Part shown: positions 26,829 through 33,379 of the stretch, piece after piece | Position numbering within the stretch: the first letter of the stretch is position 1 | Layout: every line of letters begins with the position of its first letter | Source: Candidatus Peregrinibacteria bacterium RIFOXYB2_FULL_33_20 | Lineage (GTDB): Bacteria > Patescibacteriota > Gracilibacteria > UBA1369 > GWF2-33-10 | DNA: 33,379 nucleotides | Direction: 5' to 3' | Assembly (NCBI GenBank): GCA_001788835.1 | Contig: MFXK01000029.1 | Location: 1 to 33,379, forward strand | Translations under genes and position numbers: made by a program | The notes under the pieces: generated by a model | The model's database searches: none | Seen by the model: only the letters and a program-made list of their open reading frames with translations | Told to the model about the DNA's origin: nothing

Positions 26829-27179
26829 TTAAAGAGTATAAATTAATTTAGAAAGCATCATTAGAATTTCCTGCAATTTAAATATTAAATCATCAAATAT
26901 TTCTTTAGAAAAATAAGCTAATTTATGTGAAATAATTAATTGTGTTTTTAATTCTCCAGCTGATCCTTTTGCTATTCCCAAAAATTGTTTAAACTCTCCT
27001 TTTGAATTTCTTTCTGCACCTTCGGCAATATTTGATGAAATAGACACAGATGACCTCCTAATTTGACTAACCAAACCATACAACTCTTCTTTAGGAAAAT
27101 TTGCAGTGATTTTATAAATATAAACCGATAAATCTACAGCTTTTTGCCACACTATTAATTTTTCATAATTTGATTGCAT
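26829..27179 (-). CDS. Four-helix-bundle protein (23S-IVS / S23 family, Avd-related fold)
   Basis: The 116-residue protein has the family pattern from end to end: MQSNYEKLIVWQKAVDLSVY, IYKITANFPKEELYGL, QIRRSSVSISSNIAEGAER and GSAGELKTQL. PF05635 includes proteins encoded in 23S rRNA intervening sequences and the Avd accessory proteins of diversity-generating retroelements. It probably forms a pentameric barrel binding nucleic acid, but free-standing copies have no proven role. I chose the ATG at 27179; a longer frame from a TTG at 27251 begins in livH and reads through a repeat array. The gene interrupts livH-livM and is flanked by inverted heptamer arrays, so it looks inserted. Confidence 0.85.
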   Translation of the reverse strand: MQSNYEKLIVWQKAVDLSVYIYKITANFPKEELYGLVSQIRRSSVSISSNIAEGAERNSKGEFKQFLGIAKGSAGELKTQLIISHKLAYFSKEIFDDLIFKLQEILMMLSKLIYTL

Positions 27180-27199
27180 ATATTTTATAATAAAGTTTC

Positions 27200-27248
27200 T
27201 ACTGAGTTCTAAATACTGAGCACTGAGTACTGAGTACTGAGTTCTATT
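27200..27248 (-). repeat. Heptanucleotide array, right flank of the four-helix-bundle gene
   Basis: Seven units in register on the plus strand: TACTGAG, TTCTAAA, TACTGAG, CACTGAG, TACTGAG, TACTGAG, TTCTATT. The last unit overlaps the livH stop codon. Confidence 0.85.
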
Positions 27249-28098
27249 CAAACACTCCCTTCGGTCTAAAAACCAAAAACAATGTCAACAACGCAAATGC
27301 AATTGTATCCTGCCATATTGAACCAAAAAAATAAATTCCAAAATTTTCAATTATTCCTAACATCATAGCTCCAGCAATCGCTCCTTTTACTTTTCCCATA
27401 CCACCAATAACACATGCAACAATAATTTTCAAAATAATATGAAATCCATATATCGGCCTAATCCCAATTTCAAGTGAGATCAAACTTGCCCCAATAACAG
27501 ATAAAAAAGTCGCAATAAAAAAAACATAATTCATAACAGACTCATAATTTATACCAACAGTCATAGCTAAATCATTATTTTGACCAACCGCCTTAATTGA
27601 CATTCCGAATTTCATTTTATTCATCATAAATTCGAATAAAATGCCTACTATAATAGTTACGGCCAAAATAACTAATTGATTATAAGTTATAAATAAATTA
27701 AAAAATTCATAACCTTGTGACAAATTATCATGAATTGAAATTGATTTACCCCCATTTCCAAATATAAGCGACATAACATTTTGCAAAACTATCAAAAGTC
27801 CAAATGATGCCACAATCATTGATACTGAACTCGTTTTCTTTTTTTGAAGCGGACTATAAAACATTTTCCAAAACAAAATTCCAACAAATCCAAAAATAAT
27901 ACTTGATAAAATCATGCTTAGAAAAAAATTCAACCCAACTGAATATCGAAAAACATAAGTAATATATGCTCCAAAAAAAGCCAAACTTCCATAAGCAAGA
28001 TGATAAAACCTAACAGAAGAAAATATCAAAGCAAATCCTACTGATATCAGCGCATATAAACCACCAACAATTATACCGTTAAGTAAAACTTGTATCAT
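27244..28098 (-). CDS. livH: Branched-chain amino acid ABC transporter permease LivH
   Basis: The 284-residue permease has ~8 membrane segments. It shows the LivH start (LLNGIIVGGLYALISVGFAL), the cytoplasmic loop MKFGMSIKAVGQNNDLAMTV near 155, ACVIGGMGKVKGAIAGAMML near 229 and the end FRPKGVFE. Its stop codon is directly followed by a heptamer array. It lies between livK and the inserted four-helix gene. Confidence 0.9.
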   Translation of the reverse strand: MIQVLLNGIIVGGLYALISVGFALIFSSVRFYHLAYGSLAFFGAYITYVFRYSVGLNFFLSMILSSIIFGFVGILFWKMFYSPLQKKKTSSVSMIVASFGLLIVLQNVMSLIFGNGGKSISIHDNLSQGYEFFNLFITYNQLVILAVTIIVGILFEFMMNKMKFGMSIKAVGQNNDLAMTVGINYESVMNYVFFIATFLSVIGASLISLEIGIRPIYGFHIILKIIVACVIGGMGKVKGAIAGAMMLGIIENFGIYFFGSIWQDTIAFALLTLFLVFRPKGVFE

Positions 28099-31439: not shown

Positions 31440-32285
31440 TTATTTCAATTGTGATTCCAAGACTAATTCTCTTCTAAGCCATACTGCATATTCTGAGATA
31501 TGATCAATATTATTTAAAGCAATTTGAAGCATTTTCGCGTCTTCCATTGCTATTGCAGTTAATAAATTTGCAACATTATGATTTGCAAATGAAACCAATC
31601 TTAACACGTCAAAATCTTCTATATTTTTTACAATTTCAAAATCCAACAACAATCCATGTATTTTTTCTATATTTTGAGGAGATAAATATTCACACATCTT
31701 TTCCCAAAATTTCTGCTCTTGTTGGGATGTCATATTCTCATCTAAAGAATAATCTGTTAATTCTGAAACTAAGTCCTGTACGATATGTCCTAATCCTGTA
31801 AAACCAAAAATACGGCTATATTCTTCTGTCATATGCCAAAGTAAATGTATTGATTCGGTGTCAATTTCTGGAAAATCAATCCCTGTAGGTATATCACCTG
31901 TCGATAATTTACCTTTTTCAATTGTTTGTGATATTTCTCGTGCATATGTAGTTCGCCAATCAAATATAGATAAAAGATTCCCAATTTCAACTCTAATTGC
32001 TTTTATCAAACTTTCGTTACCTGTTTCATTTTTTAAAAAATCTACTAATTTAGAATGTCGATCATTTATTATAGCTCTTAAATTCAAAAGTCTCTCTCCC
32101 AAAATAACAAGCTTATCTCGATATCCTTTAAAATATTCATCAAAATTACGTCCATTTGTATATTTTTTACCCTTTCTAGTTTCAAAAAAACTTGGTAGAT
32201 TTTGCTTATAATCATTTATTAATTGATAAATAACAAATAGATCATCCATCTCCCAGCTACAACCAGATGTTTCAATTTCTACCAT
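31440..32285 (-). CDS. Helical protein of unknown function with histidine-kinase DHp-like segments
   Basis: The 281-residue cytosolic protein is almost all helix. Two segments echo each other and the dimerisation/phospho-acceptor helices of histidine kinases: IRVEIGNLLSIFDW (~98-111) and SFANHNVANLLTAIAMEDAK (~233-252, compare 'AHDFNNLLTAI'). No ATPase domain is present, so a phosphotransfer (Spo0B- or HPt-like) role is only a speculation. It ends 1 base after the convergent regulator gene and lies ~130 bases downstream of the repeat protein on the same strand. Confidence 0.5.
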   Translation of the reverse strand: MVEIETSGCSWEMDDLFVIYQLINDYKQNLPSFFETRKGKKYTNGRNFDEYFKGYRDKLVILGERLLNLRAIINDRHSKLVDFLKNETGNESLIKAIRVEIGNLLSIFDWRTTYAREISQTIEKGKLSTGDIPTGIDFPEIDTESIHLLWHMTEEYSRIFGFTGLGHIVQDLVSELTDYSLDENMTSQQEQKFWEKMCEYLSPQNIEKIHGLLLDFEIVKNIEDFDVLRLVSFANHNVANLLTAIAMEDAKMLQIALNNIDHISEYAVWLRRELVLESQLK

Positions 32286-32398: not shown

Positions 32399-32424
32399 AA
32401 AAGCTTCAAATACTTAAGCTTTAG
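32399..32424 (-). terminator. Hairpin and T-rich tract at the end of the repeat-protein gene
   Basis: On the minus strand AAAGCTT-N9-AAGCTTT overlaps the TAA stop and is followed by TCTTTTTCTTTTATTTTT. It fits an intrinsic terminator with a weak stem. It also starts 10 bases beyond the end of the last variable-region copy, where known DGRs can carry a target-recognition hairpin. Confidence 0.5.
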
Positions 32425-33379
32425 AGACCTCTAGCGCGCAACGGAGACCCCAATCCCGACTAAGAATGCTAGCACTGTCCTTGCCCACCCGCCCACGGTC
32501 GCAACAAAGCGCAAAACCAGCTTCACGAGTTTTTTCATCTGTGTCAAGGTAGTCCCAAGTCTCTTGATTTGGAGATTCCTCTAATAATGTCACCCAATGA
32601 TCATGTAATTCACGCGACATAAGTTTTGCTCCTAAACTTCTGGCAATATCTACAGCATTGCCATCACATTTTTCTTCTGGATAATTGTCAGATAACCATT
32701 TTTGAGCTGTTGCATCATAAACTACATTTCTATTACCTATTGGTGATTCCTTTGATGCATCACCGAATAGAAAACTCTTAGCTTTATCCTGTAAAACTGC
32801 AGTTTTACCACCACGTGAGATTAACCTCCCCAATACATCTATTTTTTCAGGATCTTTTTTTAGTGATGCTTCAACTTCACCCCAATTAATTCCTAAACGT
32901 TCTAGATATGGAGCAGAATTATCTTTTACTGCATAAAGTATTCCTTGCCTTTCAGGAGATAAATCTGTACTTACTGCACTTACGGCTTCTCTATAAGATT
33001 TTTTACCTCCTAGCGCGCCACGACCGCCCCCATCCTGAAAATGATGGTCAGCAAATTCCCTGCTCACCCCTTCACTGTTGCCACAAAGCGCACGGCCAAC
33101 TTCATGGTATATTGTGTTATCACGGTCAGATCCCTGTGTAAGAAGCCAGCTCCAAGTTTTTTCATCTAATTTGAACCCAACACTTCTTAGATATTCAAAT
33201 AATACTGGAGGCATTAGTTTACTACCAATCTTTCCTAGAATTGTAACGGCATCACCATTAAATTCTTCCTTTGGGCGCTTAGCCTTGAACCATTTTGCGA
33301 CTTCTGGATCATAGACGGTATTGCGATTTGGATTGCCTTCTCCCCCAGTAGGAGAATCATTAGATGCTTCAGCAACCCA
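32414..33379 (-). CDS. Tandem DUF4256-like repeat protein with DGR-type variable regions (5' end beyond window)
   Basis: The reading frame is open to the right edge, so 321 residues are the C-terminal part of a larger protein. It contains one near-complete and one partial ~193-residue unit. Blocks shared between units: SPTGGEGNPNRNTVYDPEVAKW / SPIGNRNVVYDATAQKW (first shortened: NRNTVYDPEVAKW), then GDAV/GNAV, then KLM, then ETW or KTW, then E.G.ALC and D.G.R.AL. From memory this order matches DUF4256: 'EW.EV..RLE..P.KL', 'SAESP.GRR...YD..AL', 'AIDMA..MGIELLT', 'SSWIKTP.DIR.LGGALFCDRR', ending 'ARGFRGSL'. INWGEVEASLKKDPEKIDVL is a good example. The last 31 codons of each unit (residues 93-123 and 286-316) are hypervariable between copies. 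No signal peptide can be assessed. Confidence 0.75.
   Translation of the reverse strand, partial: WVAEASNDSPTGGEGNPNRNTVYDPEVAKWFKAKRPKEEFNGDAVTILGKIGSKLMPPVLFEYLRSVGFKLDEKTWSWLLTQGSDRDNTIYHEVGRALCGNSEGVSREFADHHFQDGGGRGALGGKKSYREAVSAVSTDLSPERQGILYAVKDNSAPYLERLGINWGEVEASLKKDPEKIDVLGRLISRGGKTAVLQDKAKSFLFGDASKESPIGNRNVVYDATAQKWLSDNYPEEKCDGNAVDIARSLGAKLMSRELHDHWVTLLEESPNQETWDYLDTDEKTREAGFALCCDRGRVGKDSASILSRDWGLRCALEVSKA
32432..32524 (-). other. Variable region copy A (last unit)
   Basis: Thirty-one codons from GAA to CTA, translated EAGFALCCDRGRVGKDSAS then ILSRDWGLRCAL. The coding strand is strikingly poor in A (about one base in nine) and locally GC-rich against AT-rich flanks. It ends 15 bases before the stop codon, the usual position of a DGR variable region. 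Confidence 0.65.
33011..33103 (-). other. Variable region copy B (penultimate unit)
   Basis: Thirty-one codons, translated EVGRALCGNSEGVSREFAD then HHFQDGGGRGAL. It aligns without gaps to copy A, with 60 of 90 bases identical after the first codon. Shared codons GCG CTT TGT, GTG, GCT, GAT, CGT and GCG CTA are identical to the third base. Confidence 0.65.

What the first reader, a model, noticed from the sequence alone, without database searches (positions are those of the whole stretch)
32432..33103. Two tandem variable regions with the adenine-mutagenesis signature of a diversity-generating retroelement
Seen directly: the 31-codon segments 32432-32524 and 33011-33103 (-) align without gaps. 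After the first codon, 30 of 90 bases differ: 14 at codon position 1, 11 at position 2, only 5 at position 3. This is the reverse of ordinary drift. Of the 60 shared bases only 5 are A on the coding strand, in an AT-rich genome. Variable codon pairs are those reachable from AAY or similar A-rich codons: TGC/GGC, GAC/AAC, AGC/GAC, ATT/CAT, CTT/CAT, AGT/TTT. Invariant codons are identical to the wobble base, although the rest of the repeat has diverged at synonymous sites. Known: DGRs copy a template repeat (TR) with A-to-N errors into C-terminal variable regions and are frequent in CPR. Inference: both units were overwritten from the same TR, so one target gene is diversified at two or more sites in a non-classical DUF4256-like scaffold.
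Basis: partly seen in the sequence, partly recalled or inferred. Interest (0 to 1): 0.92.

Follow-up and report, generated by a model that had tools for sequence, protein, structure and literature searches.

The report
Orphan retroelement target with two hypervariable sites
A gene in an uncultured Peregrinibacteria-related bacterium carries two copies of a short stretch that appears to have been rewritten at chosen letters by a mutation-making retroelement; its relatives carry the whole machinery, but this draft genome holds only the target.

Summary
Third positions are far less diverged than in the flanks (4/27 against 44/81, p=0.0003). The gene is two fused DUF4256 (PF14066) units, cut by the contig end. 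In the same order, DUF4256 genes are genuine targets of diversity-generating retroelements (DGRs): G010, G041, G045 and G047 have target, template repeat (TR) and reverse transcriptase (RT) together, with 73 of 81 TR/VR mismatches at template adenines. The window cores align without gaps to the G041 and G047 TRs; 15 of 25 differing sites fall on G041-TR adenines. The flank after the second core resembles the motif that follows relatives' variable regions (VRs). No RT, TR or Avd was found in the 96.4%-complete draft: an orphan or trans target, either a recent remnant or one whose cassette was not assembled. Structure prediction points to a C-type-lectin-like fold, so 'non-classical scaffold' is not supported. 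Possibly new: DUF4256 as a DGR target family, a stop-loss tandem target with two VRs, and a phased CTTG array 3' of CPR VRs.

The parts
32414..33379 (-). DGR target gene, two fused DUF4256 units; 5' end cut by the contig end (the window is the whole contig C29)
   Evidence: ORF; contig length; PF14066 E=1.1e-21; two domains with a family HMM (91 and 166 bits)
33008..33376 (-). DUF4256 unit 1 (its N-terminal part is beyond the contig end), ending in VR1
   Evidence: family HMM positions 72-184 on residues 2-124
33011..33091 (-). VR1 core (internal variable region), 27 codons
   Evidence: aligns without gaps to the TRs of G041 and G047
32993..33010 (-). Fusion scar: GGA GGT AAA AAA TCT TAT corresponds to relatives' tail ..GGG GTY AAA RAA GCT TAG; the stop appears to have become TAT (32993-32995)
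   Evidence: comparison with L094, L061 and L058 tails; the stop change is inferred
32417..32896 (-). DUF4256 unit 2, ending in VR2
   Evidence: family HMM positions 29-188 on residues 162-321; pLDDT 96 for the isolated unit
32432..32512 (-). VR2 core (C-terminal variable region), 27 codons
32401..32422 (-). 3' flank motif AAAGCTTAAGTATTTGAAGCTT, resembling the block that follows relatives' VRs (AAAAGCTTAGTATTTGGACTTT); it includes the stop codon and an inverted repeat AAAGCTT (32422-32416) / AAGCTTT (32406-32400)
   Evidence: best nhmmer hit in the window (6.6 bits, E=0.39; next 3.4 bits), at the expected place
31440..32285 (-). Next gene downstream, 281 aa, not an RT; it occupies the place where relatives' cassettes have TR and RT
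   Evidence: no Pfam family at threshold

Best explanation
The gene is a target (variable-protein) gene of a diversity-generating retroelement, made of two tandem DUF4256 units that each end in a variable region. Shown: the two cores share a codon-level template and differ in a DGR-like way; homologous genes in the same order have a complete DGR beside them; the flank of VR2 resembles the family's 3' motif. Inferred: an RT of this family copied a TR with errors at adenines, and the cDNA replaced VR2, and VR1 directly or through recombination with VR2. The tandem arose from duplication of the target gene and loss of the first stop codon. The RT/TR cassette acted in trans and is either in the unassembled ~4% of the genome or was lost recently. 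The variable residues probably form the ligand-binding face of a C-type-lectin-like domain; the ligand is unknown.
For: DUF4256 genes stand next to RTs in G010, G041, G045 and G047. TR/VR pairs lie at the C-terminus of those DUF4256 genes with 19/20, 17/22, 18/19 and 19/20 mismatches at TR adenines. The RTs carry the DGR-like [IL]GN[LV]xSQ motif, and G010 also has an Avd (NF033474 E=6e-19, below that model's curated cut-off; PF22296 above its cut-off). Trans targets exist in this family: G011 L070 (18/22 at A) and G047 L092, ~57 kb from its TR (15/22). The window cores align gaplessly to the G041 and G047 TRs: 15/25 and 14/25 differing sites at TR adenines, where A makes up 28/81 of the TR (Fisher p=0.002 and 0.008). 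Third positions are frozen although the flanks have drifted (p=0.0003). The 3' motif is the best hit in the window at the expected place, and it accompanies 12 of 14 such genes in RT-bearing genomes but 1 of 7 in RT-less ones (hand count; p=0.003).
Against: No RT (Pfam model; family alignment at E<=10), no TR (three patterns with up to 3 mismatches) and no Avd above cut-off in this 96.4%-complete draft. Five of the 25 differences lie in the last codons where relatives' TRs lack A. With codon position held fixed the A-site enrichment is weaker (p=0.019 for G041, 0.064 for G047). No second strain or reads were available. VR1 lacks the 3' motif.
Confidence: 0.86

Rival explanations
1. Sub-case A, remnant: the genome once had a DGR, the RT/TR cassette is truly lost, and the gene is a frozen target that no longer diversifies.
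For: No RT or TR in the assembly. High-quality relatives have DUF4256 variable-type genes without RT (G008, G052), and G004 has a target with a nearby broken RT fragment. Orphan targets are described in Treponema denticola isolates (PMC4891356).
Against: The cores are still identical at shared wobble positions and VR2 keeps the 3' motif, which most RT-less relatives lack; the loss would have to be recent. Assembly gaps are not excluded.
Confidence: 0.45
2. Sub-case B, cassette present but not assembled: the DGR is active in trans, and its locus, perhaps hypervariable in the population, is missing from the 42-contig draft.
For: 96.4% complete draft, with the contig ending inside the target gene. 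Trans targets are demonstrated in G011 and G047. VR2 motif kept.
Against: Only a few percent of the genome is missing, so absence of RT, TR and Avd together is a priori unlikely.
Confidence: 0.41
3. No DGR: a tandem binding domain under diversifying selection, homogenised by gene conversion between the two repeats.
For: Tandem repeats can convert one another. The five non-A differences at the 3' end need no DGR. No RT is present.
Against: Conversion plus selection would need about 21 first- and second-position changes in 27 codons with 4 third-position changes, confined to the stretch that in homologues is exactly the VR. It does not explain the family 3' motif.
Confidence: 0.08

Closest known systems
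DUF4256-targeting DGRs in the same order (G010:C2, G041:C1, G045:C36, G047:C6 = JAUYJL010000008.1 Candidatus Peregrinibacteria), found here
   Same: Same target domain; VR at the same C-terminal place; for G041/G047 the same VR length and register; similar 3' motif
   Different: They have TR and RT (Avd in G010) just downstream and one VR per gene; the window gene has two VRs and no cassette
Bordetella phage BPP-1 DGR (mtd/TR/avd/brt)
   Same: Mechanism proposed here: adenine mutagenesis, C-terminal VR, an element in the 3' flank (PMC3240598)
   Different: BPP-1's 3' element is a GC-rich hairpin with a GRNA loop; here it is an AT-rich conserved block
Orphan target genes of Treponema denticola isolates lacking core DGR components (PMC4891356)
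   Same: VR-bearing gene without RT or TR in the genome, read as a remnant
   Different: Different target protein and host; two VRs in one gene here
Multi-VR target ORFs (Yan et al. 2019, PMC6642488)
   Same: 31 of 271 multi-VR DGRs there have several VRs in one ORF
   Different: Their worked example is a giant adhesin with few A-to-N changes; here two VRs sit in a fusion of two target domains

Membership tests
Diversity-generating retroelement (complete system) | DGR-type reverse transcriptase gene in the genome | tested here: not met
   PF00078 and an 11-sequence RT alignment: none in G000. The Pfam search finds RTs in 17 of 59 relatives. The draft is 96.4% complete, so absence is not proven.
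Diversity-generating retroelement (complete system) | Template repeat matching the VR except at adenines | tested here: not met
   No third copy of the merged pattern at up to 3 mismatches; same caveat on completeness
Diversity-generating retroelement (complete system) | Accessory Avd protein (common, not universal) | tested here: not met
   Only sub-threshold hits to PF22296
DGR target gene with variable region | VR at the C-terminus of a target-type domain | tested here: met
   VR2 is the C-terminal end of DUF4256, the position of VRs in homologous cassettes
DGR target gene with variable region | Differences concentrated at template adenines | tested here: inconclusive
   Own TR unavailable; with relatives' TRs 15/25 and 14/25 at A (p=0.002, 0.008; with codon position fixed 0.019, 0.064)
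DGR target gene with variable region | Cis element just 3' of the VR | tested here: inconclusive
   VR2: best hit of the relatives' motif in the window, at the right place, but a modest score; VR1: not present; function untested
DGR target gene with variable region | C-type lectin fold around the VR | tested here: inconclusive
   Model pLDDT 96; the listed PDB matches are nearly all C-type-lectin-like or FGE/EgtB/SenA-type proteins, but each is weak (best E 0.026)
DUF4256 (PF14066) | Pfam gathering score | tested here: met
   77.7 bits against a 27-bit cut-off

The most novel reading that the evidence does not exclude
DUF4256 is a C-type-lectin-like DGR target family of Peregrinibacteria-type CPR bacteria, and here a stop-loss fusion produced one protein with two separately hypermutated binding faces. 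The internal VR is diversified although it lost the 3' element, and CPR DGR targets are recognised through a 7-8-nt phased CTTG array instead of a GC-rich hairpin.
Probability: 0.3. Interest if true: 0.68.

Novelty: new variant of a known kind. Interest (0 to 1): 0.52.

Why it matters
It gives a Pfam family of unknown function a likely role as a hypervariable binding domain, and gives CPR targets, which often lack recognisable domains, a named scaffold. A gene with two VRs, only one with the 3' element, is a natural test of what an internal VR needs to be rewritten. The phased CTTG array next to VRs across CPR DGRs is a concrete candidate for the target-recognition signal in this large group.

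Tried and rejected
The target protein found no close relatives in genome contigs or viral contigs, and the VR 5' pattern found nothing in viral contigs. Scanning 89 genomes of the order for the VR 3' half found only the window, so no sister TR could be used. PDB sequence search gave only spurious repeat-protein hits. The inverted repeat after VR2 as a BPP-1-like hairpin: rejected as the main argument, because relatives keep the sequence block rather than a stem. The four-helix-bundle gene at 26829-27251 as an Avd: rejected, since it belongs to the 23S rRNA IVP family and its Avd score is below cut-off. An exhaustive TR/VR scan timed out and was replaced by a BLAST-based one.

Full report
Observation. 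The two segments exist and align without gaps. The real core is the 81 bases GCGCTTTGT...GCGCGCTA (33011-33091 and 32432-32512), with 25 differences (12/9/4 by codon position) and 5 A among 56 shared bases. The remainder of the repeat unit has the ordinary pattern (33/30/44 in 81 codons). First- and second-position divergence is equal inside and outside (39%), so the anomaly is the frozen third position (15% against 54%, p=0.0003). GC is 58-62% in the cores and 36-41% around them.

The gene. The reading frame 32414-33379 (-) runs off the contig; the window is the complete contig C29. It matches DUF4256 (PF14066, 77.7 bits). A family HMM built here, from a set that includes both window units, finds two units (91 and 166 bits). 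The tail of unit 1, CTA GGA GGT AAA AAA TCT TAT, corresponds codon by codon to relatives' gene ends (L094 CTA GGG GTT AAA GAA GCT TAG), so the tandem looks like two target genes fused by a stop change TAG to TAT (inferred). None of the other DUF4256 genes examined has two units in one frame.

Relatives. In the same order 24 of 59 genomes have DUF4256 matches and 17 have RTs. In G010, G041, G045 and G047 the two are neighbours. A TR/VR scan found pairs whose VR is the C-terminal end of the DUF4256 gene, with mismatches at TR adenines in 19/20, 17/22, 18/19 and 19/20 cases; G011 has two DUF4256 VRs from one TR (20/20 and 18/22). The RTs have an [IL]GN[LV]xSQ motif before the [YF/G]xDD site; that this is typical of DGR RTs is general knowledge. 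G010 also encodes an Avd-like protein antisense between TR and RT. G047's contig corresponds by length and by an identical RT to JAUYJL010000008.1, Candidatus Peregrinibacteria. So DUF4256 is a real DGR target family here. No paper in the held library mentions DUF4256; the supplements of the large DGR surveys and Paul et al. 2017 could not be read, so prior listing there is possible.

Link between window and family. The window cores align without gaps to the G041 and G047 TRs (27 codons, same register). Of 25 differing sites 15 (G041) or 14 (G047) are A in the TR, against 28 A in 81 (p=0.002, 0.008). Before the last six codons it is 15/20 and 14/20 (p=0.0005, 0.002). With codon position fixed, p is 0.019 and 0.064, so this test alone is moderate. 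Five differences lie in the last codons (GGC/GGT, GGT/CTC, GGC/TGC) where relatives' TRs have no A. These may be differences in the 3' priming region (IMH), which in BPP-1 differs from its TR counterpart (general knowledge), ordinary divergence of VR1, or extra adenines in this species' own TR. A TR profile from relatives finds VR1 first and VR2 third in the window, both with weak scores.

3' element. A block directly after the VR and covering the stop, roughly AAAAGCTTAGTATTTGGACTTTAATTTTCTTTT, recurs in relatives' targets and not after their TRs. The best match to its HMM in the whole window lies directly after VR2 (6.6 bits, E=0.39; next 3.4 bits). In a hand count it is present in 12 of 14 DUF4256 variable-type genes from RT-bearing genomes and 1 of 7 from RT-less ones (p=0.003; genes of one genome are not independent and the scoring was by eye). 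In BPP-1 a 3' flank element is required for retrohoming (PMC3240598). Across 64 DGR loci, mostly CPR and a few of them the same place fetched twice, [CT]TTG repeats spaced 7-8 nt follow the VR (81 pairs; shuffled mean 7.3, maximum 14) but not the TR (3 against 2.5). The window's own flank shows only a weak version of the phasing.

Missing machinery. No RT, TR or qualifying Avd is in the assembly, and what follows the gene is an unrelated 281-aa frame. The draft has 42 contigs and 96.4% completeness. In relatives, trans targets are real (G011 L070; G047 L092), and RT-less genomes with such genes also exist (G008, G052), as does a locus with a broken RT fragment (G004). The evidence does not decide between a recently lost and an unassembled cassette.

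Fold. The isolated unit 2 is predicted with pLDDT 96. Foldseek against PDB lists FGE, LOX-1, intimin, NKR-P1, LYVE-1, EgtB and SenA, all C-type-lectin-like or FGE-type folds by general knowledge, each individually weak (best E 0.026, probability up to 0.92). The scaffold is therefore probably the usual DGR fold in a family not labelled as such. PMC8144416 predicted that novel C-Lec variants would be found in CPR targets.

Verdict. DGR target with two variable regions: well supported (0.86). Complete DGR in this genome: tested and not met. Present activity: untested.

Noticed in passing
80 nt 3' of VRs in 64 DGR loci (among L058-L177): [CT]TTG repeats phased at 7-8 nt follow the VR (81 pairs against 7.3 in shuffles) but not the TR: a candidate target-recognition element of CPR DGRs, unlike the GC-rich BPP-1 hairpin.
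   Followed up: partly
L026 (G004:C19): A DUF4256-type target gene with a nearby RT fragment that breaks off out of frame and an antisense Avd-like frame: a decaying DGR.
   Followed up: partly
window 26829-27251 (-): A 23S rRNA IVP / four-helix-bundle gene sits between what look like two membrane-component genes of a branched-chain amino-acid type ABC transporter; distantly Avd-like but below cut-off.
   Followed up: partly
L087 and L088 (G052:C1, single-contig genome): Two DUF4256 variable-type genes with diverged C-termini, no 3' motif and no RT in the genome: possible fossil targets.
   Followed up: no
L058 and L092 (G047:C6): A second DUF4256 gene about 57 kb away carries a VR matching the same TR (15 of 22 mismatches at A): a trans target.
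   Followed up: yes
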